DNA of 64,000 bases from Eubacteriales bacterium (lineage in GTDB: Bacteria; Bacillota; Clostridia; Lachnospirales; Lachnospiraceae), in the NCBI GenBank assembly GCA_030536555.1, contig JAUNPU010000006.1, positions 1 to 64,000 of the forward strand, read 5' to 3'. The notes beneath the pieces are model-generated. The model did no database searches. It was not told the DNA's origin and saw only the letters and a program-made list of their open reading frames with translations. This document shows positions 45,207 to 60,986 of the stretch, in pieces. Numbering within the stretch: the stretch's first letter is position 1; every line of letters starts with the position of its first letter. The position numbers and the translations under genes are program-made.

Positions 45207-45566
45207 TTAAAGTTCTGTGTATTTTCCGTTATTTCCTTTTGCCTTTTCTACCGGATATTTTTCAGCATTCTTTTCCAGTTTCCTGTCAAGCGCCTCAGCA
45301 AGATCTATATCGTTCATCTGAGCAAATCGCAAAACGAAGAATAACGTATCGGCAATCTCTTCCTCAACATGCTCCCTTTTCTCCCTGTCGGCAAATAGTT
45401 CTCTCATTTGACTGCCTGATTTAAAACGAAAAATGTCCAAAAGCTCATTTGCCTCCGTCGATATCCCAATTGCAAGATCTTTCGGATTATGAAACTGATC
45501 CCAGTCCCGTTCTTCACAAAATTTCTGAACTTTTCCTGTCATAGTTGTCAGCATCTCGTCACGCAT
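45207..45566 (-). CDS. MazG-like nucleotide pyrophosphohydrolase
   Basis: 119 residues. The all-alpha NTP-PPase fold is shown by the metal-binding pattern EANELLD ... EEEIADTLFF, i.e. the paired E-x-x-E and E-x-x-D helices of the MazG/dCTPase group. The family hydrolyses non-canonical or excess nucleoside triphosphates to monophosphates. It overlaps the GIY-YIG/DUF2075 gene by 8 bases and is the last gene of the accessory operon. Nucleotide-depleting enzymes of this class occur in several phage-defence settings; here that role is inferred from neighbours. Confidence 0.85.
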   Translation of the reverse strand: MRDEMLTTMTGKVQKFCEERDWDQFHNPKDLAIGISTEANELLDIFRFKSGSQMRELFADREKREHVEEEIADTLFFVLRFAQMNDIDLAEALDRKLEKNAEKYPVEKAKGNNGKYTEL

Positions 45567-47157
45567 TATTCTTATCCTCCAGCAACGCTATATAATTGCT
45601 AAAATACTTCCGCAGTTCTTCATCACAAACATATAAATATGTTCCACGAATCCCTCTTGTCAAAAGTACATAATAAATATTTTTTACATATCCAAGCAAC
45701 TCATCATCTCCTGCTGTATTCTTTCCATTTCTATCAAAATAGTTTTCCCGTCGAACAATAAATGATCCTGTACTCCAATCATACCCCAATTCATTTCCTA
45801 TGATTACAAATGTATAATTCAAATCATATCCCTGTACAGAATGAATACAGCCAACCTCATCAATTGCCTCATTTGAATGGACCCAGCCTTCGGTACAATG
45901 ATTCCATTGCTTCTTTATACCTTCAATTTCTATATCATATCTTAACTTATCTTTTTTGCTTACCCACTCCCACGCATATCCTGCCACCATTCGTGTCAGC
46001 TTGTACTCGCATTCTTTCTGATACATTAACTGATTAAATTCAGCAAAATTCTGCACCATATAAAAGTCATAGTTTGATATCTTTTTTCTTGTCACATTCC
46101 CGGAGAACAAAGCCTCAACATAAGACATATAATTATTTCCGCCTTTTACTCTCATCTGCGTCCATAATGTATAATAACTAATCAGGCGTTTGCTTTTCTC
46201 AGCACCCAGCTTACGCTCAAACCGCACCATGTCAATTCCAGATGGTCCCACCACCTGTTGTTTATCATAAAACAATACCGGGCAATCACATTGATGAAAA
46301 ATCCAATCAAGCTCATCACTTTCCATCGGCAGTCCGATTCGTTCACATGCCTTTTTAAAAGGTCCCCTATACGAAATATTTCTGTATTGGTGAAGTCTGT
46401 GTGCCTCATCCACCAGCAAAATATCATAATGCTGTTTTGTAACATCAGAGGGTTTTATCACATCTGCAGGACAAAGACCATAAATACTTTTAAAAATAGT
46501 TTTTAGTGTCTTCCGGAGAGATGTTTGCGGTATCACAATCGCAATTTTCTTATCTCTGAACTCATCACTGTCCCGTAAATACTTCAGCAGATAGATAGCT
46601 ACAATCGTTTTTCCTGATCCCGGCATTCCATTTACAACAATATTCTGTTTGGGATTTTCCTGTATTTTCTGAAGTATTTCATCAACAGCCAGCCTTTGAT
46701 CGTCATTCAATTCCTTAAATGGAGAGTACTTAAATAAATCTGTATTTTCAATCTCTTCCAGGGAGTGTTTGACAAGCTTTTCTCTTTGTAACCTTCTCCA
46801 TAATACAGGAAACGTTTCATCATATTCGCTTTTACCAAAATATGCTTTATCAGCCATTCCAGCATTCTTATTTCGAACCTCAAAAACACCGTCTGCCGCA
46901 ATATACTGAATCAGTTTCGATTCATAATCCAACGTCACAGACAAATTGAATTTTGAAGAATATATGAAATGTACGTTTACAAAAATATCTTTATCTTTTG
47001 ATTTTTGATGTTCTGCCATACGGGTTTTTATATGATTCGACTGACCTATATATGCCTGTTTCCCATTCTCCAGAATATATAGCATCGGCCAATTCTCAAG
47101 GTAGCTCTCATCCCCGTATTGCTGGTTTACAAAGTCCCCAACTGTTACCTTAAACAT
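45559..47157 (-). CDS. GIY-YIG nuclease domain fused to a DUF2075-type helicase
   Basis: 532 residues. An N-terminal GIY-YIG domain (about 22-105) reads LYILENGKQAYIGQS with the conserved arginine in IKTRMAEH and a likely catalytic glutamate in YESKLIQY. A DUF2075/Schlafen-type P-loop helicase domain follows: NGMPGSGKTIVAIYLL near residue 175, DILLVDEAHRLHQY, and the DUF2075-typical C-terminal GCIHSVQGYDLNYTFVIIG and YVLLTRGIRGTYLYV. AT-rich. It lies 15 bases after the Gp88-like gene and overlaps the MazG-like gene. The layout suggests an ATP-driven nucleic-acid translocase carrying a nuclease. Confidence 0.85.
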   Translation of the reverse strand: MFKVTVGDFVNQQYGDESYLENWPMLYILENGKQAYIGQSNHIKTRMAEHQKSKDKDIFVNVHFIYSSKFNLSVTLDYESKLIQYIAADGVFEVRNKNAGMADKAYFGKSEYDETFPVLWRRLQREKLVKHSLEEIENTDLFKYSPFKELNDDQRLAVDEILQKIQENPKQNIVVNGMPGSGKTIVAIYLLKYLRDSDEFRDKKIAIVIPQTSLRKTLKTIFKSIYGLCPADVIKPSDVTKQHYDILLVDEAHRLHQYRNISYRGPFKKACERIGLPMESDELDWIFHQCDCPVLFYDKQQVVGPSGIDMVRFERKLGAEKSKRLISYYTLWTQMRVKGGNNYMSYVEALFSGNVTRKKISNYDFYMVQNFAEFNQLMYQKECEYKLTRMVAGYAWEWVSKKDKLRYDIEIEGIKKQWNHCTEGWVHSNEAIDEVGCIHSVQGYDLNYTFVIIGNELGYDWSTGSFIVRRENYFDRNGKNTAGDDELLGYVKNIYYVLLTRGIRGTYLYVCDEELRKYFSNYIALLEDKNNA

Positions 47158-47172: not shown

Positions 47173-48009
47173 TCATCTCAATTCAGAACACACATTTTTC
47201 ATCGGAAAAGTATAACATCGTTTGCACTCTGCACAGGTTATTCTGCTGCAATCCATGTTAACCTTTTCCATTTGATCCGTTGCAATATATTTCGGCAAAG
47301 AATATTTGTCAATAATACTGATTTTGTTCTGTTCCTTCTCTGAATCATCCATCAGGCTTCCAATAATGTGCAGATTAAAATCCTCTAACCTGTATGGTTC
47401 ACGCTTCATTGGCGGCGCTTCATTCATTATCTCTTCATAGGCTTCTGCATACAGCTCTGCAAGCTTCTTTTGATCAGACAGAACATGATCTAATATTATC
47501 AGTGACTTTGTATAAGCCGAAAACACATAATCCTTTCCCTTCAATCTCAGCCTCAACGCTATTTTCATCCACTTGCGCAAGTATTCTTCCGAATAAAAAT
47601 CCCCGCTTGCATGTAAGCGAACATATATCTGCTGCCCTGGTTTTGGACGAAGTCTTTCCAGTTTTCTTACCATTTTATCAACAAAGTCATCCTGAAGCGA
47701 AAGAAACCAATTCATCTTTCTGTGTATCACAATTGCGGAATCTCTTCCCTCCCCTTTATGCATCTTTTCAACACTGATTTCATAACAGGACTTCTCACAA
47801 ATATCCGTTCTTTCAGGACATGTAAGCAGGCAGGGAAGATCAAATATTTCAAAACGTACATCATCTGCTTTTCCCAGAAAAGAATTTTTCGTACTTAACA
47901 TCTTCCCGTTTTCTTCTTTCAACAATTCTGTTCTTTCATCTGGAGAAAGCCTCATGAATGCCTCTATGGTCATACACTTCTCCAGTATTTTTCTGGTATT
48001 TTCATTCAT
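47173..48009 (-). CDS. Gp88-like cysteine-rich protein
   Basis: 278 residues. Resembles the phage 'gene product 88' family: KNSFLGK, then a CxxxC-x6-CxxxCY cluster (C60, C64, C71, C75), RLHASGDFYSEEYLRKW and VFSAYTKS. A second cluster lies at the C-terminus (C254, C259, C262, C265), giving eight cysteines that could bind zinc or an iron-sulfur centre. The biochemical role of the family is unknown. The ATG overlaps the end of the primase-helicase gene by 8 bases. Family assignment is from memory of motif pattern. Confidence 0.65.
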   Translation of the reverse strand: MNENTRKILEKCMTIEAFMRLSPDERTELLKEENGKMLSTKNSFLGKADDVRFEIFDLPCLLTCPERTDICEKSCYEISVEKMHKGEGRDSAIVIHRKMNWFLSLQDDFVDKMVRKLERLRPKPGQQIYVRLHASGDFYSEEYLRKWMKIALRLRLKGKDYVFSAYTKSLIILDHVLSDQKKLAELYAEAYEEIMNEAPPMKREPYRLEDFNLHIIGSLMDDSEKEQNKISIIDKYSLPKYIATDQMEKVNMDCSRITCAECKRCYTFPMKNVCSELR

Positions 48010-51000
48010 GTTCTTTATTCTCCTTTACGTTCTCCGTATTTCCAAACGTCAACTCCATAAGCTCCGCCGCAATCTCCCTGCTGCATACCCGCATCAGATT
48101 ATCCTCCGCATCCTCTTTCGCCAGAAAGTTCATGCTTCCATACCAGACAATCTCGTGGTCCACAATCACATAATGCTCACAGAACTCTTCTGCCAGATTC
48201 ATTTCAAATCCGGCATTTCTCATTCTTTCATGCAATTCCATCCAGTAATCGGTTCTGCCATATCCATAAGAATCCGGCTGCCAGGTAACAACCACAATAC
48301 GCAATCCCGCTTCCTGTTTCTCCTTCAGCAGACGCATCATCTCATCCACTTTATCCGCGCTGATTGCCGGGCTTGAAATGATGATTTCCTTATCTGCTTC
48401 CAGCAGATCACGCTCATATACACTCCGATATCTGTCCATATCGTAAATGGCATTTGCTTCCTGTTTTGCATTCTCGTTGCCTGAATATATTTCATATCCA
48501 ATCTGCCTGTATGCGTGCAGCCGCTTACTGTACATCCTGTCAAAAAACGGTATGTGGCTGTCCACATAATCATACACGATGACGCTGTCTTTCCCCTCGT
48601 AGTCCCGGTTCAGGCGGCCTGCATACTGCTCCACCACACCCTTTCCTGCAACCGGAGTCGCCATGATTAAGGTATCCAGTCTCGGATAATCAAATCCCTC
48701 TCCAATCAACTGTCCAGTCGCAACCAGAATCATACTTTGCTCTGGTAAAACCTGTTCCATCTGTCGTATTACTTCTCTGTGCTCCTTCCTGGAATTATCA
48801 CCGGAAAGCAAAAACACGCAGTCTGCATGTGCAAGCAATCGGTCATACAAACGCTTGGAATGGTCCTTGTACCTGGATAATACAACCGGTGTTCTGCCAT
48901 CTTTCACGCATTGAATCACGTCCCCGAGAATCATTTCATCTCTCATCTCATTGTCCCTGAGAATTGCATATGCCTCATTCGGATGCATTCGTTCCTGCTG
49001 AAATCTCGGTGCTACAGCTCTTGTAAACCTGGGATATACCAGATGCGGAATGCCCTGCTCCTCTGCCCGTTCCTTTGCTGAAAAGCGATATCGAATGGGT
49101 CCGAGAAGCATATCATTCACTTTCTCCAATCCATCCCCACGAAACGGTGTTGCGGTCACTCCATACACATATTTTGCCCGTACTTCCTGAAGCACCTGGA
49201 CAATCGTATCCGACGCAGCATGATGGCATTCATCCAGAATAACCATCCCGTATTCCTTTAATTTCGGATGAAATTCTCCTTTTTTACATAGAGAACCAAC
49301 CATCGCAATATCGATGATACCTGTAGAGGAATCATACGCCCCCTGAATCTTTCCGATCACACTTTTTCTTCTTCGGATGCGGCCGGTCGCTGTCTCATAT
49401 TCCGGCGGTTCTTCCTCAATCGCAAGGAATTCCTGCAATGCTTTCTCCCATTGCTCCATCAGAGAAGATGCCTGCAGCAGAATCAAGGTGCTCACCTTTC
49501 TCTGAGCGATCAGGTTACTTCCGACTACCGTTTTTCCAAATGCAGTAGCTGCGCTGAGTATCCCTGTATCGTGTTCCAGCATCTTTTCTACCGCCGGTAT
49601 CTGGGAAGTCCGAAGCCTTCCTGTAAATTCAACCCGTATTTCTTTCCCGGCACTTCTCTTATCCTCAATACAATATTCAATGCCCGCTTCAGCACATTTT
49701 CTGGACAATTCTTCCTGCAATCCTCGCGGAATCTCTATATAACCATTCTCATCTTTGCCAAGATATATGTATCTTGAATATGCAAAATTCGACAGCCCGA
49801 TAGCCTGATTCCTATAAAATACCGGGTTGGAACATGCCGCCAGCTCCCGTATCTGATTTTGCAGCCGCGGCTTCAGATTGGCAGTTTCAATATAAATCAC
49901 ATTCGCCAGCGTCATCTTCAGCAAGCCTTCCACATCTTCTTTATGAAACTGCCTGCTCTTCTCCCACGGTTTTTCCGTCTGACCGCTCTCTTCCTCAAGC
50001 GGATTTCTCGCTGTCCATTCCTTCACACATTGATTCAGAAATTCTTCCGTCAGTTTTTTCCTGTTTAATAATATCTCCCACTGATTTGCGTATGCATTCC
50101 AGTTTTCATCAACAAACGCACTGTTTCCCTGTTTCAATGCCTGCCCCTGCAAAGGAAGTGCAATCAGATTGCCAAGTCCTCCATCCGGAACATGATCCTG
50201 CAATGGAATCATCCGGTCATAGTAGCGAAAAGATTTCAGATTTACCGCTTCTGCACCTTTTCTCAAAAGCACCATTCCAAACTTTCTTGCCAGTGCAGCA
50301 CTCACAGGCTTCCGGAAGAAGATCCAGACATGTGCGCCCCTACCGGAACGCGAACGCTCCACCAGCGCATCGATTCCATTTAACCGGCAGATTTCTCTTA
50401 ATGCATCTACCTCTTCTTTCCAAGTATCATCTGCATTTGCAAAATCCTGTTTTTCTGCCCCTTTCTCATGGTTATCAAAATCATATACAAGGAATCGGCA
50501 GGTTCCATCCGGCAGCAGCGGATACACGCCAATCACATCCGTCCCATCTGGTTCTCTGCCCATCAGATGCCCTTTGATATCATCCTTTTCCAGCTTCGTC
50601 CACCTGCGATTTGTACAGTCAGAACATTTTATTTTCTGCCCGCTCTTCCTCGGACATCTGTACGTCCAGAAGTTATCACACTGCGGATAGTAGTTCGCTT
50701 CGCCTGTACTTTTCTTCACGGTACGCTTGCTGTAAACATCCTCCCGCCCCCAGAACATGGCAAAAAATCGCACTGCCAGATCATCAGTTATCGGAACCCT
50801 CTGAATGCGGTTGCCCTGATTGGAATCGTCATAATTCCGTTCTTCTTTCCCTGATTCAGAAGTATCATAAGAAATCCCTGCCTGATTCAGCAGATTCTGG
50901 AGATAGTTCACTCTGCTTTGCAGTCTGCTTATGGTTTGCTGTAATTCATAAATCTGCTGCTCGCTTTTGTCCATGTTATTCTTCTGTACCATCGTCTGAA

Positions 51001-51016
51001 ACTTGGCATATTTCAT
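48002..51016 (-). CDS. TOTE-type primase / SF2 helicase / PLD-like protein
   Basis: 1004 residues. A short coiled coil (about 14-46) is followed by an archaeo-eukaryotic primase domain (about 75-320): cysteine-rich zinc knuckle C113/C121/C131/C134, metal-binding DFD at 179-181 in RFLVYDFDNH and SGRGAHVW near 224-230. A linker leads to an SF2 helicase (about 465-830) with Walker A-like ATAFGKT near 491, DECH at 595-598, GVTATPFRGDG and a C-lobe with GEGFDYPRLD and QYAGRLNRD. The C-terminus (about 885-990) resembles a phospholipase-D-type nuclease, ending in VIVDHEIVWYGSMNFL, but the usual HxK of the HKD motif reads CEH. This matches the primase-helicase core of TOTE conflict systems. Four bases separate it from the UvrD-type gene. 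Confidence 0.85.
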   Translation of the reverse strand: MKYAKFQTMVQKNNMDKSEQQIYELQQTISRLQSRVNYLQNLLNQAGISYDTSESGKEERNYDDSNQGNRIQRVPITDDLAVRFFAMFWGREDVYSKRTVKKSTGEANYYPQCDNFWTYRCPRKSGQKIKCSDCTNRRWTKLEKDDIKGHLMGREPDGTDVIGVYPLLPDGTCRFLVYDFDNHEKGAEKQDFANADDTWKEEVDALREICRLNGIDALVERSRSGRGAHVWIFFRKPVSAALARKFGMVLLRKGAEAVNLKSFRYYDRMIPLQDHVPDGGLGNLIALPLQGQALKQGNSAFVDENWNAYANQWEILLNRKKLTEEFLNQCVKEWTARNPLEEESGQTEKPWEKSRQFHKEDVEGLLKMTLANVIYIETANLKPRLQNQIRELAACSNPVFYRNQAIGLSNFAYSRYIYLGKDENGYIEIPRGLQEELSRKCAEAGIEYCIEDKRSAGKEIRVEFTGRLRTSQIPAVEKMLEHDTGILSAATAFGKTVVGSNLIAQRKVSTLILLQASSLMEQWEKALQEFLAIEEEPPEYETATGRIRRRKSVIGKIQGAYDSSTGIIDIAMVGSLCKKGEFHPKLKEYGMVILDECHHAASDTIVQVLQEVRAKYVYGVTATPFRGDGLEKVNDMLLGPIRYRFSAKERAEEQGIPHLVYPRFTRAVAPRFQQERMHPNEAYAILRDNEMRDEMILGDVIQCVKDGRTPVVLSRYKDHSKRLYDRLLAHADCVFLLSGDNSRKEHREVIRQMEQVLPEQSMILVATGQLIGEGFDYPRLDTLIMATPVAGKGVVEQYAGRLNRDYEGKDSVIVYDYVDSHIPFFDRMYSKRLHAYRQIGYEIYSGNENAKQEANAIYDMDRYRSVYERDLLEADKEIIISSPAISADKVDEMMRLLKEKQEAGLRIVVVTWQPDSYGYGRTDYWMELHERMRNAGFEMNLAEEFCEHYVIVDHEIVWYGSMNFLAKEDAEDNLMRVCSREIAAELMELTFGNTENVKENKEHE

Positions 51017-51019
51017 AGG

Positions 51020-54000
51020 TTACTCTTCCTCAAAGACTTCTCTGTCAGGGTGTTCAAGATATACTTTTAACTTCTTCAATTCTGCCACTGTTATCATTTC
51101 TTCATAATGATTTCCTTTATATGTCTGATGAAGCACCGGGTAATTTCCTTTTGTCTTCAATATGTAGTGATTCGCAATCAGCCATTCGATGATTGCCCGT
51201 ACATCAGCTTTGGCAAGATGTTTTAAACCACCATATTCCCCGCACAGATTCAAAGCATTATCACTGATTTTTTTATTCTCGTACCCGCAAAGTACCCCTA
51301 CAAGAACCGTTATTCCAAAATATTTACTGGCACTCACTTGTTCTAAACCATTTAAAATTTTGAATACTGTAATATAAAGATCCTGTTCTTTATAGTATAC
51401 TTTCTCATCCTGATTTGCTTTTCCAACAGGCTCCGTTTTAGCTGTTTTCCTATCCGAAGCAACGTTGAATCTTTCCACACTGTTTGCATTTTGGGGTGCC
51501 TCTGGATTTGGACTGTCATTCAGAGAATTGCTCTTCGGAGGAATATCTCTTCCACTAAGCATTTTAACCGGCTCTGCCTTATCTGGTGTCAGGTTTAATA
51601 GCTTATAATAGTCTTTACTCCAAATAATTTTATCACATCCGGTTTTATCCTTTTTATAATTGGTACATCCAAGAAAATACTGACCATCCTTAGTCGGTTT
51701 TACAATCAGATATCCATCCCTGCATTTGTCACACTTCATAATCGACAGTTTTCCTGCTGTGTATTCATTCGACATATAACCACACACTTCTGGCTCATTT
51801 GTACAGATATAAAGCCGTAATCCATAGGCTTTTTTATACTTAAACTGAAGCGGATATCCACAAATAGGGCAGGATTTCCTTAATATTTTCTGACTGCTTT
51901 CGTCTTCGTTCCAGTTACCTTTCAAAACTACATTTTTATAATCTTTTTTTATTTCAAGCAAAAATTCCGATGGATTTTGCTCTGGCGCAATGAAGTAGAC
52001 CCTGTTCTTTGTTCTTGTCATTGCAACATAAAACAATCGACGCTCCTCAGCATAATCAATCGACCGATTACCTTTTATCACAAAAGCAAGTACCGGATCA
52101 TCTTCGATTTTGGATGGAAATCCATATGTTTCATTACGTCCATTGACTACAATAACATTGTCATATCCAAGTCCTTTTGACATATGAACTGTCATAAATG
52201 TAATGTCCAATTTCGGATATTTTACGGACTTAATCTTATTTCCACGGTTAATGTATTCAAACAATCCCGACTTTTCAAGCATATCCCCGTCAAACCCGTA
52301 TCTTCCAAGTAATAATATCGTTCCATCCTCGGGTTTGCCTGCTGTCCGATTCATTTCAACAATGTGATTTAACGCCGTCTCCACTGCATATGCCGTAGCA
52401 TAATTCACACCACTTCGTCGATCGCCATTTGGAGATTTATAAGTGCTGTCATACGTATATATGATAACCGGATCCTGAATTTTCTTTGGAGAAACAAGTG
52501 TTTTTGTAATCTGATGCGGATTCTTCTGAATAAAGTTTCCGGCTATATCAATTACTTCCTGTGAGTTACGATATGTCTTAACAATTTTCAAAAGTTTTGC
52601 ATACCCCATCCTCTCCTCAAATTTTGTAAATAAGGAGATATCAGAACCACTGAACGCATAAATAGACTGCCAGTCATCACCAACTGCAATAATCTTTGCA
52701 TCCGTCACTTCCGCAAGTGCCGTTGTCAGATCAAAGCGTTGTTTTGAAATATCCTGATATTCATCCACAATAATATACTTAAAATTCAACTTTTGCTTCA
52801 TTTCCTTTACTTCACGAAGCACTCTTGCCGATTCATTAATCATGTCTTCAAAATCCACTGCATGATTCTTCTTCAAATATCTTTCATATTCCAAATAACA
52901 ATCCTGACAGATATCCAGGAATAGACGGGAACGTACATTTTGAGTAGAATGATACATCCTGTTGAACTCATCCGCAGTATATCCATTAGTTTTAAAATTA
53001 GCAATAAATCTGCAAATCAGATTCACAAGCTTTCGGATATACTTGGTTTCCTCAGAGGAAATCAGCTTTTTCATAATTTCCTGATTGGAGCGTGGCACCA
53101 AAACAAACCCGGCATCTTCCAACTTTTCTTTCAAATGCTCGGTTAATGGTCTGCCATCATTGTATTCAGAAAATGTATATAACATCTGTGTTCCATGCTT
53201 TTTATGCAGCAGAACTTTATCATTAATAGCATCTTTATAAGCTGCTAATTGCTCCAGCGTATATCGATCATTCTGACCATCTTCCGTAATTCCAAAATGC
53301 TCGATATATGCAACTTTTTCTCCCTGTCTAATAATAAAATCCGGTGTATAAGGTTTACGTGCATATTCAATATTATATTGATAGATTGGCTCATACTCAT
53401 ACTCAATACTGTTAAGATACAGATAATTGGCAATCTCAACTTCCTGATGCGAACGCAGAATCTCATTCTGTATTGTGACTTTCTTCTTCGTTCTTGTATC
53501 AACCACCTGACATTTAAATTCATCCAAATCGCTCCGCATAGTAGCAAAATTTGACTTTGCTATTTTATTAAAAAACGCATTAAGCTCATTGCCCTCATAT
53601 GGTGCATCAAAATATACTGCAAAAAACCGGATAAGATTATTAACCAGTGTCTCATTTGTCAAAATTGAATTTTTAAAATAATACTGCAGTACAAAATACA
53701 GCTTTGAGCCATCTACAATATTCAAATTTTCCGGATCATTCATATGAAGCACTGCGTTTCCCGTAGCATGGAATGTCGCTATTGGACAGTCAATCTTTAA
53801 GTCCTTCTGTATCTTCTCTTTCAGTTCTCCGACAGCTTTATTCGTAAACGAGATAACAAGAATATCTCTGGGATTGATATTCTTCTTCTCTACAAGATAT
53901 TTCACCTTTGCAGCTACCGTCGTTGTCTTTCCAGCACCCGCACCGGCAATCACAAGGCAATAATCCTCATCGGTTAATACTACGCGGCGCTGATCTTCAT

Positions 54001-54400
54001 CTAAAACTATTTTTGAATCTACGTCCTTTAATATTTCATCCAGATAGTCCTTATCCATGATTAAATGTCGCCGAATAAACTCCTCATTGTAAAGTTCCAC
54101 CAGATTATCTATGGTATTATATTTTTTAAGGATATCAGAGGCTCGTTCTGGTGCAATTCCGCTTTTTTTACAATATGCCCCCATCTGCCCACTGCTTTCC
54201 AATACCTCAAAATATTGAATAATCTCTTTATATTCCTCACATTTTCCCTTGTATGTCTTTCTGGCAACATAGATATCTTCTAAAAAAAGATCATCAAAAA
54301 AAACACCAAGTTCAAGCAGCCGCCTGCATTCTTCCGGCATACCTGACTTTGATGTATTCGTTGTTTTCCCTCTGCTGAACAATCTTGATAAAAATCTCAT
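51020..54400 (-). CDS. UvrD/Rep-type helicase with nuclease-like insert, zinc ribbons and RQC-like end
   Basis: 1126 residues. SF1A helicase motifs: Walker A GAGAGKTT at about 153-160, DEYQD at 546-550, GDDWQSIYAFSGSD, VHMSKGLGYDNVIV and FYVAMTRTKNRVYF. An insert at about 315-415 has the look of a PD-(D/E)XK fold (YTPDF with D354, then YIEHFG with E367), without the usual lysine; similar inserts occur in helicase-IV-like proteins. After the motor come two topoisomerase-type C4 zinc ribbons (about 885-975: CPICGYPLQ, CDKCRDGYL, GCTNYKKDKTGC) and a RecQ-C-terminal/winged-helix region (about 1030-1115). First gene of a five-gene series with minimal gaps. Probably unwinds damaged or foreign DNA; role inferred. 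Confidence 0.86.
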   Translation of the reverse strand: MRFLSRLFSRGKTTNTSKSGMPEECRRLLELGVFFDDLFLEDIYVARKTYKGKCEEYKEIIQYFEVLESSGQMGAYCKKSGIAPERASDILKKYNTIDNLVELYNEEFIRRHLIMDKDYLDEILKDVDSKIVLDEDQRRVVLTDEDYCLVIAGAGAGKTTTVAAKVKYLVEKKNINPRDILVISFTNKAVGELKEKIQKDLKIDCPIATFHATGNAVLHMNDPENLNIVDGSKLYFVLQYYFKNSILTNETLVNNLIRFFAVYFDAPYEGNELNAFFNKIAKSNFATMRSDLDEFKCQVVDTRTKKKVTIQNEILRSHQEVEIANYLYLNSIEYEYEPIYQYNIEYARKPYTPDFIIRQGEKVAYIEHFGITEDGQNDRYTLEQLAAYKDAINDKVLLHKKHGTQMLYTFSEYNDGRPLTEHLKEKLEDAGFVLVPRSNQEIMKKLISSEETKYIRKLVNLICRFIANFKTNGYTADEFNRMYHSTQNVRSRLFLDICQDCYLEYERYLKKNHAVDFEDMINESARVLREVKEMKQKLNFKYIIVDEYQDISKQRFDLTTALAEVTDAKIIAVGDDWQSIYAFSGSDISLFTKFEERMGYAKLLKIVKTYRNSQEVIDIAGNFIQKNPHQITKTLVSPKKIQDPVIIYTYDSTYKSPNGDRRSGVNYATAYAVETALNHIVEMNRTAGKPEDGTILLLGRYGFDGDMLEKSGLFEYINRGNKIKSVKYPKLDITFMTVHMSKGLGYDNVIVVNGRNETYGFPSKIEDDPVLAFVIKGNRSIDYAEERRLFYVAMTRTKNRVYFIAPEQNPSEFLLEIKKDYKNVVLKGNWNEDESSQKILRKSCPICGYPLQFKYKKAYGLRLYICTNEPEVCGYMSNEYTAGKLSIMKCDKCRDGYLIVKPTKDGQYFLGCTNYKKDKTGCDKIIWSKDYYKLLNLTPDKAEPVKMLSGRDIPPKSNSLNDSPNPEAPQNANSVERFNVASDRKTAKTEPVGKANQDEKVYYKEQDLYITVFKILNGLEQVSASKYFGITVLVGVLCGYENKKISDNALNLCGEYGGLKHLAKADVRAIIEWLIANHYILKTKGNYPVLHQTYKGNHYEEMITVAELKKLKVYLEHPDREVFEEE

Positions 54401-54572: not shown

Positions 54573-54953
54573 CTACCCTTTTGTCTCAGGGACACTGTTC
54601 TTCTCAAATTCCCGGGCAAACTCCAAAGCTTCTTCCATCGTATTCTTCCAGCCATATTTCTTCAAATCCACGCGCCAGCCGTCCTCTGTCCACATCACCT
54701 CTACCCCCTCTTCCTGAAGCAGAAGCTTCTGCAAATCCCATGTTTCAAAAGATGCCGCACCACTTAAAATGCCTTTTGAATTGACAACACGGTGCGCCGG
54801 AGCCTGGTCGCCGGCAAGTCCTTCACGAAGGGCATAGCCTACCTGGCGGGCGTTCTTAGGTTTGCCACAGAGGAGAGCGAGCTGACCGTAGGTGGCTACT
54901 GCTCCATAGGGAATATGGCGGCAGACGATGGTTAGTTTTTCGTAAAAGGTCAT
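54573..54953 (-). CDS. Alkyltransferase-like (ATL) DNA-binding protein
   Basis: 126 residues. It has the methylguanine-DNA methyltransferase fold (IPYGAVATYGQLA, NARQVGYALREG, VVNSKGIL), but the acceptor motif PCHR reads PAHR, so the reactive cysteine is replaced by alanine. ATL proteins cannot remove alkyl groups; they bind O6-alkylguanine, flip the base and hand the lesion to nucleotide-excision repair. A C-terminal acidic tail follows. It lies 7 bases after the methyltransferase gene and upstream of the helicase series, in the same direction. Confidence 0.9.
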   Translation of the reverse strand: MTFYEKLTIVCRHIPYGAVATYGQLALLCGKPKNARQVGYALREGLAGDQAPAHRVVNSKGILSGAASFETWDLQKLLLQEEGVEVMWTEDGWRVDLKKYGWKNTMEEALEFAREFEKNSVPETKG

Positions 54954-54960
54954 CTATGCA

Positions 54961-55557
54961 TCACACTTTCTTCTTATTCACCAATACATTAATCCAACTC
55001 TCATGAGTCCGTTCCTGCCTCACATCTGATGTAATAAAGCACTTCAAATCGCCCCATCCAAAATCCTTGGAAAATAAAGTTTTCATATCCTCTTCCATAT
55101 AATTATTGAACAGGCGACCATTTCGTTCTATTTCCCCACTCCCATATTTGAATGAGACATATAGAGTTCCACCCGATATCAACGCAATATGAATCCTCTT
55201 TATGACATCTTCTATCTTAGTTTTCTCAACATGCAACAGCGAAGCGCAGGCCCACACCCCATCGAATTCCTCAACGTAATCCAGTTTCTCAAATGACAGA
55301 CATCTCACCTTCTGTCCTGTATATTCCGTTGCGAATCTGCAGATAGTTTCCGCTCCATCCACTGCGGTAACTCTGTAACCTTTATTCAGAAACTCCTTTG
55401 TGTCCCTGCCGCTGCCACAACCCAGATCCAGAATCCTGGCATTCTCTGGCAATCTTTCTAAAAACGGACGATACAAACTGTTCATATCACACTGAACTGT
55501 GCTTTTGCAAAATTCATTTGCATTTTCATTATAATACTCAAGCGTTTGATTTTTCAT
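54961..55557 (-). CDS. Class I SAM-dependent methyltransferase
   Basis: 198 residues. The SAM-binding motif is RILDLGCGSGRDTKEF near residue 45, with the acidic motif II VTAVDGAE and the post-motif VWACASLLHV. No NPPY/DPPY or PC motif of DNA methyltransferases is present, so it more likely acts on a small molecule or protein. The ATG at 55557 lies inside the end of the HNH gene (20-base overlap), so the two are coupled. Substrate unknown. Confidence 0.82.
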   Translation of the reverse strand: MKNQTLEYYNENANEFCKSTVQCDMNSLYRPFLERLPENARILDLGCGSGRDTKEFLNKGYRVTAVDGAETICRFATEYTGQKVRCLSFEKLDYVEEFDGVWACASLLHVEKTKIEDVIKRIHIALISGGTLYVSFKYGSGEIERNGRLFNNYMEEDMKTLFSKDFGWGDLKCFITSDVRQERTHESWINVLVNKKKV

Positions 55558-56668
55558 ATATCCACTCTTTGAATCCCAGATTATGCGCTGACTGATAAAT
55601 CGGATGAATAATTTCTTCCAGATAACCAGAAAAAGTATCCCTGTCCAGCCCATCCCGATAAAGCCGCCCCATCACTTCACTGCTGTTTACATGCTCTCTG
55701 CTGCACTGCTCAAATGCTTTCTTTATCTGCCCGTACTTCTGACCTGCTTCATAAGAAAGATATTCAATTTCACACAATCTTGGAAAATAAATTGCCCAAG
55801 TCGGCAAGCTATTGCTTTTACTGCTGTTAATGCTTTTGGTCGTCGGACTCAGATTCCACAGTTCATCATGCGCCACATAGGACCATGGCACAAAATGATC
55901 GATGGAAATATCCTTTCTATCCAATATACCCTCTGCATAAATATCCCGAACCGGCATAACTTCCGCAATCATCTTCCAATATTTCTGTACCTTTTCCAGT
56001 TTACGCTCCTGTGGTGGATTCAGCTTCTTGATGATACCCGGTACATCAGGATTTCTTCGCTGTAAATATGCTACCATGTGATAACATATCCACCCGCGAA
56101 GAACCGCCTGATTCTTCACAATATAATCCTGCCATTCGGGTGTGATTCTAATCTCCGTCTGCAAACCATTAAGCGCAGAGAAGTAATAAATCAGCCGTTT
56201 TTCCTGATTGATTTTCTGTGCCAGTTTCTTCTCAGATACTTTCCACTCGTCCTTCTTAACGAAATCCATAAACGGAGCCTGCAGACGATATGGAACTTGA
56301 TACGTCAATGTCCGCTTCTTACTCCTCAAAATTGAATCATCACAATCTCTTAAATAATCCAGAATCTTCTCTTTCTTCTCACTGGTTTTCAATCTACTGA
56401 CATTATGAACATGATGTACCAATGCTTCCAGCGTATCGGCTGGTCCAAGATTCAGATTGTACTCAGAAACCATGTACCAGGAATCAGCAATCATTTCGTT
56501 GATTAACTCATCATAGCTGAGTTCTGTTTTTCCATCACTTACCAGATTGACGATTGCCTGAAACCAGAATAGCTTGTAACACTCGCTCATGTTGTCAAAG
56601 AGGCGGGACAGACAACCGATTTGCAGGTTGTCTGTTTGAGGTAATAATAGTGCTTTAGTATCTAACAT
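55538..56668 (-). CDS. HNH-endonuclease-domain protein
   Basis: 376 residues. An all-helical N-terminal region of about 245 residues of unknown family is followed by an HNH domain (about 252-300): DRKDISIDHFVPWSYV, then DELWNLSPTTKSINSSKSN, i.e. the DH, N and N/H positions of an HNH_4-like site. A C-terminal helical region closes the protein. Such proteins are found beside restriction and other defence genes. It lies 73 bases after the Mrr-type gene and overlaps the methyltransferase gene. Confidence 0.8.
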   Translation of the reverse strand: MLDTKALLLPQTDNLQIGCLSRLFDNMSECYKLFWFQAIVNLVSDGKTELSYDELINEMIADSWYMVSEYNLNLGPADTLEALVHHVHNVSRLKTSEKKEKILDYLRDCDDSILRSKKRTLTYQVPYRLQAPFMDFVKKDEWKVSEKKLAQKINQEKRLIYYFSALNGLQTEIRITPEWQDYIVKNQAVLRGWICYHMVAYLQRRNPDVPGIIKKLNPPQERKLEKVQKYWKMIAEVMPVRDIYAEGILDRKDISIDHFVPWSYVAHDELWNLSPTTKSINSSKSNSLPTWAIYFPRLCEIEYLSYEAGQKYGQIKKAFEQCSREHVNSSEVMGRLYRDGLDRDTFSGYLEEIIHPIYQSAHNLGFKEWIYEKSNA

Positions 56669-56741: not shown

Positions 56742-57635
56742 CTAAAATTCAAAATAATCACGGTCTATTCTCTTCACCGATACTTCTCTTTCAACGGAAA
56801 CTCCCAAATTATACTGTATCATCAACTCTGTTAATTTTTTTCCATCGATAAGTACAATATCTGAATGCGGATAACTCTTAGCAAACTCTTTCGCTCCTGT
56901 AGAAAAATACGATGTTGTAATAAAAGCACCTCTTGTCACAGCACCTAAAGCACCTGCGAAACTCTGTATTTCCGGTCTTCCTACAGAGTGATTTACTGCA
57001 TATCGTTTTGCCTGAATAAATATTGGATTAAAGCCCAATGGATCTGTTTTTATAATTCCATCGATTCCGCCATCATTCGAGGCCGGCGTTACCGCACCTT
57101 CCCCATATCCCATTTTCTCCAGTAAATCTGTCACCAGTTTTTCAAAGAACGTATCCCCGGTTCGCCCTTCAATCGACATAATTGCATCCATAAGTTCATG
57201 CGCCAATTGTTCTTGTATTTCTTTAAGCGTGGAATCCAGCAATTCTATTGGACTTCTATCACTCATCTGAGCTTCTGCCAGTTCTCCATCGTCTTCTTCA
57301 CCATGCATACTTGCATCTCTGGCAATATGAAGTTCCCTGATAAATTCCCTCAGTTCAAGCCTTCTCGCCAAAATATCTTTTCCTGCCTCAGAAATCGTAT
57401 AGGTCCCTCGTCTTACTCGATTAACAAATCCCGCTGCACACAACCATGAAACCGCCCATCCTGTACGGCTCTCATATACAGGTGCTCCGCTGCTCGTTTT
57501 TTGCTTCTGCTCTTCTTCTGTTAGATGTAACGTTCTGCAGACCGCATCTTTAGCCTGACTTCTGGAAAATTCCGGATAGCCCGCCATTGTTTCCAATACA
57601 TATTGAAACATCTCTGTCTGTGATGGTATTGCCAT
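56742..57635 (-). CDS. Mrr-type restriction endonuclease
   Basis: About 297 residues. An N-terminal winged-helix Mrr_N region (QTEMFQYVLETMAGYPEF ... WLCAAGFVNRVRRGTYTIS) is joined by an acidic linker to the Mrr catalytic domain (about 160-285). The PD-(D/E)XK residues are visible as GGIDGII followed by IFIQAKRY (the QxK form), with GRPEIQSFAGAL and GAFITTSYFS after. Mrr enzymes cut DNA carrying methylated bases. The ATG at 57635 is used, with a GGGGAG purine run just before it. First gene of the minus-strand island. Confidence 0.9.
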   Translation of the reverse strand: MAIPSQTEMFQYVLETMAGYPEFSRSQAKDAVCRTLHLTEEEQKQKTSSGAPVYESRTGWAVSWLCAAGFVNRVRRGTYTISEAGKDILARRLELREFIRELHIARDASMHGEEDDGELAEAQMSDRSPIELLDSTLKEIQEQLAHELMDAIMSIEGRTGDTFFEKLVTDLLEKMGYGEGAVTPASNDGGIDGIIKTDPLGFNPIFIQAKRYAVNHSVGRPEIQSFAGALGAVTRGAFITTSYFSTGAKEFAKSYPHSDIVLIDGKKLTELMIQYNLGVSVEREVSVKRIDRDYFEF

Positions 57636-57908
57636 AAACTCTCCCCACTTCTTCACGTTTTCTAATTGTTACTTTAAAAGCCATATAAAATTATTTTAAC
57701 ATAAAACCAGTTCATTCTCTACTAAAATAATGTGGGCAATTCAGCACATACACTGGGATTCTATACTTAAAACTTAAAATTTCATTTTTCATCTAATTAT
57801 CAGCACTATTGTACAGAGCGTCAAGCATTTTCTTTAATATTTATACACAAAAGTGTCCTTATGTGATAGTATATAAATGTGAACCAATAAAACATAGAAG
57901 ATAGTGAC

Positions 57909-58284: not shown

Positions 58285-59433
58285 ATGAAAATATGTGATA
58301 TGAAAGCTGGACAGCCAATTATCTTTACCAAACCCAAACAATACGAATTCGTTAAATCTTTAGGTGCTGGTGGTACGGGAAAAACTATTCTTATGCAAGA
58401 TGCAACAATTAACCAATATTTTGTATGCAAAAAATATGATCCTGAACAGAAAGAATATGAGGATGAATTCTTTAGCAGATTTGTTGACGAGATAAAAATT
58501 ATGTATTCTCTCTTTGACCGTAACATCGTTAGAATTTTTGATTATTATCTATATCCAGAAGAAAAAACTGGTTATATCATTATGGAATATATCAAAGGCT
58601 GTAATATTGATGAATATTTTCAGTTTAATCAATTTGAACAAATTAATTCTATATTTGTCCAAATGATAAATGCTTTTGCGTATCTCGAACAAAACAATAT
58701 TCTACACCGAGACATCCGTGCTGCAAACATTATTATTGACAGTTCTGGTTCTGTCAAGGTAATTGATTTTGGATTTGGGAAATGTCTGAATGCAGGAAAC
58801 AATAATGAACAAGCAAGCATTATCCTTAATTGGCCTGCTTCAAAAATACCAAATGAGATATATAAAGAAGTATACAATGAAGGAACTGAAATATTTTATG
58901 TAGGGTATCTAATAAAAAATATAATTGATAAATACTCTATTGATTGTTTTAAATACAAAATTTTACTAGATCAAATGATATCCGTTAATCCATCAGAACG
59001 ATTTTCTTCATTTGAAATAGTGAAACAAAAAATTGCTGAACAAACCTTTGAAAATATTAGTTTTTCTGATTCTCAAAAGAAGATATATCAAGAATTTGCG
59101 TCTGCTATTTGTAATGTATTGTCCAGCATAAATGATACTTTAACATTAGAATGGGATACATCTGTAATTATTGAAAATTTAAGAATAATTCTTAGAGATA
59201 ACAGTTTAGAAAAATATATTTCAAAACCTGAGAAACTGATTCAATGTTTTGTTAAGTCTGGCTTTAAATATTACCGTAAAGGTATTTTAGTATCTGATGT
59301 AAAATTGTTTTATGACTTTTTTGTAAGTCAAACCAGCCCATATCAAGAAATTATTCTGAATAATTTATATGGACGAATAAACAATATCCCCATTATTGAT
59401 AGCACATCTGATATGGATTTACCTTTCAACTAA
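58285..59433 (+). CDS. Ser/Thr protein-kinase-like protein
   Basis: 382 residues. A eukaryotic-type kinase fold fills about residues 20-260: glycine-rich SLGAGGTGKT, lysine in YFVCKKYD, catalytic loop HRDIRAANII, DFGFGK as the metal motif, and PSERFSSFEIV near the domain end. The C-terminal 120 residues match nothing I recognise. There is no membrane helix or PASTA domain, unlike PrkC-type kinases, so it is cytosolic. Strikingly AT-rich relative to guaA and the trp genes. It lies next to the Mrr-headed island but on the other strand. Stand-alone kinases of this kind have been found in phage-defence regions; a role here is inferred. Confidence 0.78.
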   Translation: MKICDMKAGQPIIFTKPKQYEFVKSLGAGGTGKTILMQDATINQYFVCKKYDPEQKEYEDEFFSRFVDEIKIMYSLFDRNIVRIFDYYLYPEEKTGYIIMEYIKGCNIDEYFQFNQFEQINSIFVQMINAFAYLEQNNILHRDIRAANIIIDSSGSVKVIDFGFGKCLNAGNNNEQASIILNWPASKIPNEIYKEVYNEGTEIFYVGYLIKNIIDKYSIDCFKYKILLDQMISVNPSERFSSFEIVKQKIAEQTFENISFSDSQKKIYQEFASAICNVLSSINDTLTLEWDTSVIIENLRIILRDNSLEKYISKPEKLIQCFVKSGFKYYRKGILVSDVKLFYDFFVSQTSPYQEIILNNLYGRINNIPIIDSTSDMDLPFN

Positions 59434-59548: not shown

Positions 59549-60841
59549 TTACTCAAACTCAATCGTAGCAATCGGCTTCTTCGTCAACTCATAACAAACT
59601 CTGTTCACGCTCGGAACCTCTGCCGTAATTCTGTCAGCAATTCTGTCCAGAATATCATAATTAATCCGCTCAATGGTTGCCGTCATGGCATCAACCGTAT
59701 TCACCGCACGGATAACAACCATATATCCCATGCTTCTCGCATTGTTTCTGACACCAACTGCCTTGAAGTCCGGAACAACAGTAAAGTACTGCCATACCTT
59801 CTTATCCAGTCCAGCCTTAGCGAACTCCTCGCGCAGAATCGCATCGGACTCTCTCACTGCTTCCAGTCTGTCTCTGGTGATTGCACCTAAGCATCTTACG
59901 CCGAGACCCGGGCCCGGGAATGGCTGACGGTATACCATGTCGTGGGGGAGACCCAGCTCCACGCCGCAGGCACGCACCTCATCCTTGAAGAGCTGCTTAA
60001 GGGGCTCTACTAGTTCGAACTGCAGGTCCTCCGGAAGTCCGCCTACGTTGTGGTGAGACTTCACGCATTTTGCAGTCTTGGTACCGCTCTCGATGATATC
60101 CGGGTAGATGGTTCCCTGTCCCAGGAAATCGATGCCTTCCAGCTTTCTTGCCTCTTCCTCGAATACGCGGATGAACTCGCCGCCGATGATCTTACGCTTC
60201 TGCTCCGGATCTGCTACGTTCTCCAGCTTGCCAAGGAAACGCTCGGAAGCATCGACGTATACCAGATTTGCATGGAGCTCGTCACGGAAGATCCTGACTA
60301 CGCTCTCAGACTCATTCTTGCGCATCAGGCCGTGGTTTACGTGAACGCATACAAGCTGCTGGCCGATGGCCTTGATCAGCATGGCTGCTACTACGGAGGA
60401 ATCTACGCCACCGGACAGTGCCAGCAGGACCTTTCTGTCGCCAACCTGCTTGCGGATCAGCTCCACCTGGTCCTCGATGAAGTTCTTCATGTTCCAGTTC
60501 GGCTCTGCCTTACACTCGTCAAATACGAAGGATTTCAGTGTCTCCATATCCGGAAGCTTGTCGTACTGCTTCTCACATCTGGAAGACGGATAGTCTACGG
60601 AAATCATCGGGTAGCCCAGATCATACAGCTCCGGTCTGATCTCTACGGCTGCGCCGTCCACGACACGGTTTTCTCCGCCATTTAAAATAATACCTTTTAC
60701 ATTGTCCAGAGCTTTCAGTTCTTCTACGGTGATATCATGGGGATGAATCTCACTGTAAACGCCAAGGTCACGAATTTCGCGGGCTGCGACGGTATTCTCG
60801 GTGCTGCCCAGGTCCAAAATTACGATCATATCCTGTTTCAT
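59549..60841 (-). CDS. guaA: GMP synthase with degenerate glutaminase domain
   Basis: 430 residues against about 515 for standard GuaA. The ATP-pyrophosphatase half (LLALSGGVDSSVVAAML) and the dimerisation half (QPFPGPGLGVRCLGA, VNRVCYELTKKPIATIEFE) are complete, so XMP to GMP conversion should work. The glutaminase half is shortened to about 115 residues: it keeps VILDLGSTENTVAAREI and GIILNGGEN, but the nucleophile site reads MISVDYPSS in place of the normal GxCxGxQ, and the His-Glu pair is missing. It must therefore use free ammonia or a separate glutaminase. The ATG at 60841 follows AAAGGAG. Confidence 0.92.
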   Translation of the reverse strand: MKQDMIVILDLGSTENTVAAREIRDLGVYSEIHPHDITVEELKALDNVKGIILNGGENRVVDGAAVEIRPELYDLGYPMISVDYPSSRCEKQYDKLPDMETLKSFVFDECKAEPNWNMKNFIEDQVELIRKQVGDRKVLLALSGGVDSSVVAAMLIKAIGQQLVCVHVNHGLMRKNESESVVRIFRDELHANLVYVDASERFLGKLENVADPEQKRKIIGGEFIRVFEEEARKLEGIDFLGQGTIYPDIIESGTKTAKCVKSHHNVGGLPEDLQFELVEPLKQLFKDEVRACGVELGLPHDMVYRQPFPGPGLGVRCLGAITRDRLEAVRESDAILREEFAKAGLDKKVWQYFTVVPDFKAVGVRNNARSMGYMVVIRAVNTVDAMTATIERINYDILDRIADRITAEVPSVNRVCYELTKKPIATIEFE

Positions 60842-60986
60842 GGTAAGCTTTTCTCCTTTGCCATTAAAAATATCGCTGTCTGTTAAAAATACAGATATAT
60901 TATACCGCATGGTACAACAAAAATCATTAAAAATCGTCCGTTTTTGTCAACTTTTTATTGAAAATATCACAGTTTCCTGCCCGTAA

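What the first reader, a model, noticed from the sequence alone, without database searches (positions are those of the whole stretch)
47173..48009. Phage-type Gp88-like protein with two four-cysteine clusters in a bacterial operon
A family best known from phage genomes sits inside a five-gene bacterial series, overlapping the primase-helicase gene by 8 bases. The clusters C60/C64/C71/C75 and C254/C259/C262/C265 could hold Fe-S or zinc. No other phage genes are near, so it is not a prophage leftover. It may be an unrecognised enzyme of the system.
Basis: partly seen in the sequence, partly recalled or inferred. Interest (0 to 1): 0.6.

Follow-up and report, generated by a model that had tools for sequence, protein, structure and literature searches.

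The report
Gp88-like three-cysteine enzyme in defence operon
A gene of a family known mainly from phages sits inside a bacterial anti-phage-type operon and is probably an iron-sulphur enzyme built like the radical-SAM enzymes, but this pairing was found in only this one genome and the function is untested.

Summary
The ORF (47173-48009, minus strand, 278 aa) is real. It matches Pfam GP88 (PF17338) at E 5e-23, 82.6 bits against a cut-off of 24.4. It has its own Shine-Dalgarno site, overlaps the primase-helicase gene by 8 bases and lies 15 bases before the next gene. The cysteine claim needs correcting. Across 158 family sequences C64, C71 and C75 are invariant, but C60 occurs only here, so the first cluster is a three-cysteine motif (CX6CX3CY). 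The C-terminal four-cysteine cluster recurs in about a third of the family. A confident AlphaFold model of a phage member (pLDDT 95) places the cysteine loop after strand 1 and the invariant GD after strand 2. Its best structural matches are radical-SAM enzymes (spore photoproduct lyase, SuiB, QueE, viperin), but only at Z about 7. I infer a non-canonical radical-SAM-like Fe-S enzyme acting on nucleic acid or nucleotides. The operon combines a recurrent cluster (GIY-YIG/Schlafen helicase + MazG, sometimes HNH and methyltransferase) with UvrD, a TOTE primase-helicase and GP88. No other GP88 gene was found beside these partners (60 TOTE-primase, 10 Schlafen-helicase and 80 other prokaryotic GP88 loci), so membership of a fixed system is not shown.

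The parts
47173..48009 (-). GP88-family gene, 278 aa: predicted radical-SAM-like Fe-S protein
   Evidence: Pfam PF17338 E 5e-23; PHROG 1392 E 5.5e-15
48020..48025 (-). Shine-Dalgarno site AAGGAG, 10 nt before the ATG of the GP88 gene, inside the end of the primase-helicase gene
   Evidence: read directly
47782..47820 (-). codons for C64-Y76: invariant three-cysteine motif C-X6-C-X3-C-Y
   Evidence: 158/158 for the three Cys; spacing survey
47596..47619 (-). codons for R131-F138 (RLHASGDF): R, G, D invariant; ends strand 2, where radical-SAM enzymes carry GGE
47356..47376 (-). codons for N212-S218 (N-x5-S on strand 4), after an insertion of about 23 aa special to this protein
   Evidence: E-INS-i alignment
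47215..47250 (-). codons for C254, C259, C262, C265: C-terminal C-X4-CxxCxxC cluster (auxiliary Fe-S or zinc)
   Evidence: same kind of arrangement in 55 of 158 family sequences
45207..45566 (-). MazG-like nucleotide pyrophosphohydrolase
   Evidence: Pfam PF12643 7e-13; adjacent to the Schlafen helicase in 8 of 9 near-relative loci
45559..47157 (-). GIY-YIG nuclease + Schlafen-group-3/DUF2075 helicase
   Evidence: Pfam PF09848 4e-58, GIY-YIG 5e-4
48002..51016 (-). TOTE archaeo-eukaryotic primase + SF2 helicase + PLD-like domain
   Evidence: Pfam PF22548 2e-78, ResIII, Helicase_C, PLDc_2
51020..54400 (-). UvrD/HelD-type helicase with a possible nuclease insert, zinc ribbon and RQC domain
   Evidence: Pfam, PHROG resolvase/endonuclease hits at residues 304-405
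54573..54953 (-). alkyltransferase-like protein (PAHRV in place of PCHRV)
   Evidence: Pfam PF01035, NCBIfam ogt below cut-off, sequence read
54961..55653 (-). class I methyltransferase; homologue beside Schlafen-MazG-HNH in L346
55538..56668 (-). HNH endonuclease; homologues beside Schlafen-MazG in L346, L347, L350
   Evidence: Pfam PF13395

Best explanation
The protein is a divergent GP88-family enzyme, probably taken from the phage gene pool into a defence operon. Inferred mechanism: C64, C71 and C75 bind a [4Fe-4S] cluster whose open iron binds S-adenosylmethionine, with the GD after strand 2 in the role of the GGE motif. One-electron reduction makes a 5'-deoxyadenosyl radical that modifies a nucleic acid or nucleotide. 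The C-terminal C4 cluster is a second Fe-S or zinc site. Shown: family, three invariant Cys, conserved RxHxxGDF, predicted fold order, operon position. Inferred: cluster type, SAM use, substrate, and cooperation with the neighbouring helicases, nucleases and MazG.
For: PF17338 match. C64/C71/C75, R131, G136, D137 in 158/158 and H133 in 157/158. AlphaFold model of family member L195, pLDDT 95.2, pTM 0.91: strand 1, Cys loop, helix; strand 2 ends in GD. Structural second look: 12 of the top 13 rows are radical-SAM enzymes (spore photoproduct lyase Z 7.3, 3.5 A over 166 residues; SuiB 7.3; QueE 7.2; viperin 6.9), with TYW1, MiaB and NifB just below. Profile kinship to DUF5131, hhalign probability 88%, E 3e-6; a DUF5131-type protein matches NCBIfam 'radical SAM mobile pair protein A' at 5e-26, though under its cut-off. 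The query's own model shows the same element order. Tight spacing and Shine-Dalgarno sites make co-transcription likely. The other operon genes act on nucleic acid or nucleotides.
Against: The cysteine spacing is not the canonical CX3CX2C, and no member scanned matches the Pfam radical-SAM profile. Foldseek alone gives no hit better than E 0.02, and Z about 7 is within the range the tool calls common; non-SAM TIM barrels follow within 1 Z. The query's own model is weak (pLDDT 67) with a disordered C-terminus. The GP88-defence pairing was not found again.
Confidence: 0.55

Rival explanations
1. The conserved cysteines bind zinc or a structural Fe-S cluster in a non-catalytic, nucleic-acid-binding accessory protein of the operon.
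For: Non-canonical spacing; no radical-SAM profile match; C-terminal C4 cluster looks zinc-ribbon-like; fold matches are of middling Z.
Against: Three invariant Cys plus invariant R and GD and strongly conserved H, N and S at the ends of barrel strands look like an active site; radical-SAM enzymes top the structural list.
Confidence: 0.25
2. Hitchhiker: a phage GP88 gene captured in a mobile defence island, with no functional tie to its neighbours (this can be true together with the radical-SAM-like chemistry).
For: Only this genome shows the pairing; family mostly viral or actinobacterial in the scans; island has 30-47% GC against mostly 49-60% in the flanks.
Against: Intact ORF with all core residues, Shine-Dalgarno site, 8-base overlap upstream and 15-base gap downstream; a long branch of 3.5 with an intact core suggests long retention under constraint.
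Confidence: 0.35
3. Viperin-like role: the enzyme makes a chain-terminating or modified nucleotide and the MazG protein tunes the nucleotide pool.
For: Viperin among the structural matches (Z 6.9); MazG in the same operon.
Against: Matches to spore photoproduct lyase, QueE and peptide-modifying enzymes are equally good; MazG goes with the Schlafen helicase in loci that lack GP88.
Confidence: 0.08

Closest known systems
GP88 family, Pfam PF17338 / PHROG 1392 (mycobacterial, streptomycete and many environmental phages)
   Same: Three invariant Cys with CY, RxHxxGDF, N-x5-S, C-terminal C...CxxCxxC in a subset
   Different: At most about 30-40% identity in the best segment; about 30 aa N-terminal extension and an insertion of about 23 aa before strand 4; lies in a bacterial defence-type operon
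DUF5131 (Pfam PF07505, phage Gp37/Gp68) and NCBIfam rSAM_mob_pairA
   Same: Cys motif with CY followed by S/T-D-F after strand 2; hhalign probability 83-88%
   Different: Cys spacing GCX6CX2CY; the query itself has no DUF5131 match
Radical-SAM enzymes: spore photoproduct lyase, QueE, viperin
   Same: Predicted barrel order, Cys loop after strand 1, acidic motif after strand 2
   Different: CX6CX3C instead of CX3CX2C; no sequence similarity detected
DUF1848 proteins (PADLOC RTasDUF1848 of defence reverse transcriptases)
   Same: From background knowledge a radical-SAM-like cysteine protein; one lies directly before a TOTE primase in L063
   Different: No relation found by the searches made here; different cysteine layout
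Schlafen-helicase/MazG/HNH cluster with PLD-DUF3427 helicase and NUDIX (L346, L347, L350)
   Same: Schlafen helicase, MazG and HNH shared with the window island (in L346 the methyltransferase too)
   Different: No GP88, UvrD or TOTE primase; L346 carries Nmad3 and L347 and L350 a small pyrophosphohydrolase-like gene instead

Membership tests
GP88 (PF17338) | profile score above the curated cut-off | tested here: met
   82.6 bits against 24.4
GP88 (PF17338) | invariant C-X5/6-C-X3-C-Y and RxHxxGDF | tested here: met
GP88 (PF17338) | match over the C-terminal third of the profile | tested here: inconclusive
   HMMER stops at position 164 of 230; E-INS-i recovers N-x5-S and CxxCxxC
Radical SAM superfamily | canonical CX3CX2C motif | tested here: not met
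   spacing is CX6CX3C; variant spacings are known in the superfamily from background knowledge
Radical SAM superfamily | Pfam radical-SAM profile match | tested here: not met
   no match at E 0.1 for the query or 36 relatives
Radical SAM superfamily | partial TIM barrel with cluster loop after strand 1 and SAM-binding motif after strand 2 | tested here: inconclusive
   order agrees; best structural matches are radical-SAM enzymes but Z only 7.3
Radical SAM superfamily | reductive SAM cleavage | not testable with these tools
   needs biochemistry
DUF5131 (PF07505) | profile match above cut-off | tested here: not met
   no match for the query; 3 of 37 members weakly, best E 0.003
TOTE-primase system | TOTE primase-helicase gene in the operon | tested here: met
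   PF22548 E 2e-78
TOTE-primase system | GP88 as recurrent partner | tested here: not met
   0 of 60 TOTE loci; none of 80 other prokaryotic GP88 loci

The most novel reading that the evidence does not exclude
GP88 proteins are a new class of radical-SAM enzyme with a CX5-6CX3CY cluster motif that edits nucleic acids or nucleotides in phages, and here a bacterium has turned one into a radical-chemistry component of a primase-helicase defence operon.
Probability: 0.25. Interest if true: 0.75.

Novelty: new variant of a known kind. Interest (0 to 1): 0.48.

Why it matters
GP88 relatives were found in more than 400 viral contig stretches here and in many actinobacteria, and the Pfam and PHROGs entries give no function. 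A testable enzyme class for it would explain a common phage gene. If the gene works in this operon, it would add a radical enzyme to primase-helicase defence systems.

Tried and rejected
Four-cysteine first cluster: rejected, C60 is unique to this protein. Conserved GP88-TOTE or GP88-Schlafen association: not found. A general link between TOTE primases and radical-SAM-like neighbours: only two of 60 loci (DUF5131 in L055, DUF1848 in L063), too few to claim. Query model alone in fold search: pLDDT 67, no useful hits, so a family member was modelled. Foldseek without the second look gave mostly generic TIM barrels. Sequence profiles against solved structures: nothing significant. First viral scan with the single protein found nothing. 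A second, query-centred viral scan found nothing closer than 40% identity in the best segment. Papers: no text in the held library on TOTE systems, GP88 function or DUF5131; the 2013 nucleotide-modification paper looked up by DOI is not held. Neighbours of phage GP88 genes: DUF932, ERF recombinase, terminase; no modification theme. Apparent loss of the conserved N and S in the query was an alignment artefact.

Full report
What is there. The ORF at 47173-48009 on the minus strand codes for 278 residues. Pfam GP88 matches at E 5e-23 and 82.6 bits, far over the 24.4 cut-off, on residues 29-196. PHROG 1392 also matches; PADLOC and NCBIfam give nothing. The gene has an AAGGAG site 10 nt before its ATG, overlaps the primase-helicase gene by 8 bases and is followed after 15 bases by the next gene, which has its own AAAGGAG.

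Cysteines. Scans with a seed alignment fetched 160 relatives; with the query and known members they give 158 distinct sequences. C64, C71, C75, R131, G136 and D137 are in all 158; H133 in 157; C60 only in the query. Spacing is mostly CX5CX3CY or CX6CX3CY. The C-terminal C...CxxCxxC is found in 55 members, including phages of Mycobacterium, and is absent from most actinobacterial chromosomal or plasmid members.

Fold. With a 104-row alignment a viral member (L195) folds at pLDDT 95.2 and pTM 0.91: strand 1 (27-29), the Cys loop (38-49), a helix from 50, strand 2 (103-109) running into G110-D111, strand 3 with YT, strand 4 with N-x5-S, strand 5. This is the order of radical-SAM enzymes (background knowledge: cluster loop after strand 1, GGE after strand 2). 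The VIA second look ranks spore photoproduct lyase, SuiB, QueE and viperin first at Z 6.5-7.3, followed by TYW1, MiaB, NifB, LIAS and others. The tool warns that Z under 8 may be a common arrangement, and Foldseek itself reported no E under 0.02, so this is support and not proof. A separate line: GP88 aligns with DUF5131 by hhalign (83% and 88%). Of the 14 clostridial genomes in which the GP88 profile rings, 12 owe it to DUF5131-type proteins, and one of these matches the NCBIfam model named radical SAM mobile pair protein A. The query's own model is poorer (pLDDT 67) but has the same order, and an E-INS-i alignment shows it keeps N-x5-S after an insertion of about 23 residues.

Neighbourhood. 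The minus-strand series reads HNH, methyltransferase, alkyltransferase-like protein, UvrD-type helicase, TOTE primase-SF2 helicase-PLD, GP88, GIY-YIG/Schlafen helicase, MazG. An Mrr-type restriction enzyme and a protein kinase lie beside it. GC is 30-47% here against mostly 49-60% in the flanks, which suggests an acquired island. Near relatives of the Schlafen helicase (57-71% identity) are adjacent to MazG in 8 of 9 loci; HNH homologues follow in three and a methyltransferase homologue in one, with PLD-DUF3427 helicases and NUDIX genes. Four of the window's genes thus belong to a recurrent cluster.

How unusual is GP88 here. TOTE primases are common in the family (53 of 397 genomes), and in many of the loci studied the gene has no tightly spaced neighbour; none of 60 loci studied has GP88. 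None of 80 other prokaryotic GP88 loci has the primase, Schlafen-helicase or MazG. A close relative was found in none of the other 199 family genomes, and the family profile found none in the 308 other Bacillota genomes searched. In a tree the query is a long unplaced branch with viral rows nearest and at most 29% identity over the aligned columns. A jump from the phage pool is the simplest reading, but the tree does not prove it.

Judgement. Probable radical-SAM-like Fe-S enzyme (I put the chemistry class near 0.65-0.7, and its working within the operon near 0.5). It is a member of GP88; it may work like a radical-SAM enzyme but is not filed as one, because the canonical motif and profile were tested and not met.

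Noticed in passing
54573-54953: O6-methylguanine-DNA methyltransferase-like protein with PAHRV in place of the active PCHRV: an alkyltransferase-like (ATL) protein next to a UvrD-type helicase.
   Followed up: partly
L063:1-12008: A TOTE primase gene ends an operon with a DruE-like (Druantia) helicase, UvrD, a TPR-like protein, a methyltransferase-like protein and a DUF1848 protein of the kind PADLOC ties to defence reverse transcriptases.
   Followed up: partly
L346:9245-17686: Schlafen helicase, MazG, HNH, methyltransferase, Nmad3 (nucleotide modification associated), PLD-helicase-DUF3427 and NUDIX on one strand: looks like a system aimed at modified DNA or nucleotides.
   Followed up: partly
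56742-57656 and 58285-59433: Mrr-type restriction endonuclease and a serine/threonine protein kinase gene at the edge of the same low-GC island, which ends near guaA (59549-60910), a known integration site from background knowledge; no integrase seen.
   Followed up: no
51020-54400, residues 304-405: The UvrD-type helicase seems to carry an inserted PD-(D/E)XK-like nuclease (PHROG resolvase and endonuclease hits).
   Followed up: no
48002-51016, C-terminus: The PLD domain reads H-Y-V instead of H-x-K at its catalytic motif, so it may be inactive in this protein.
   Followed up: no
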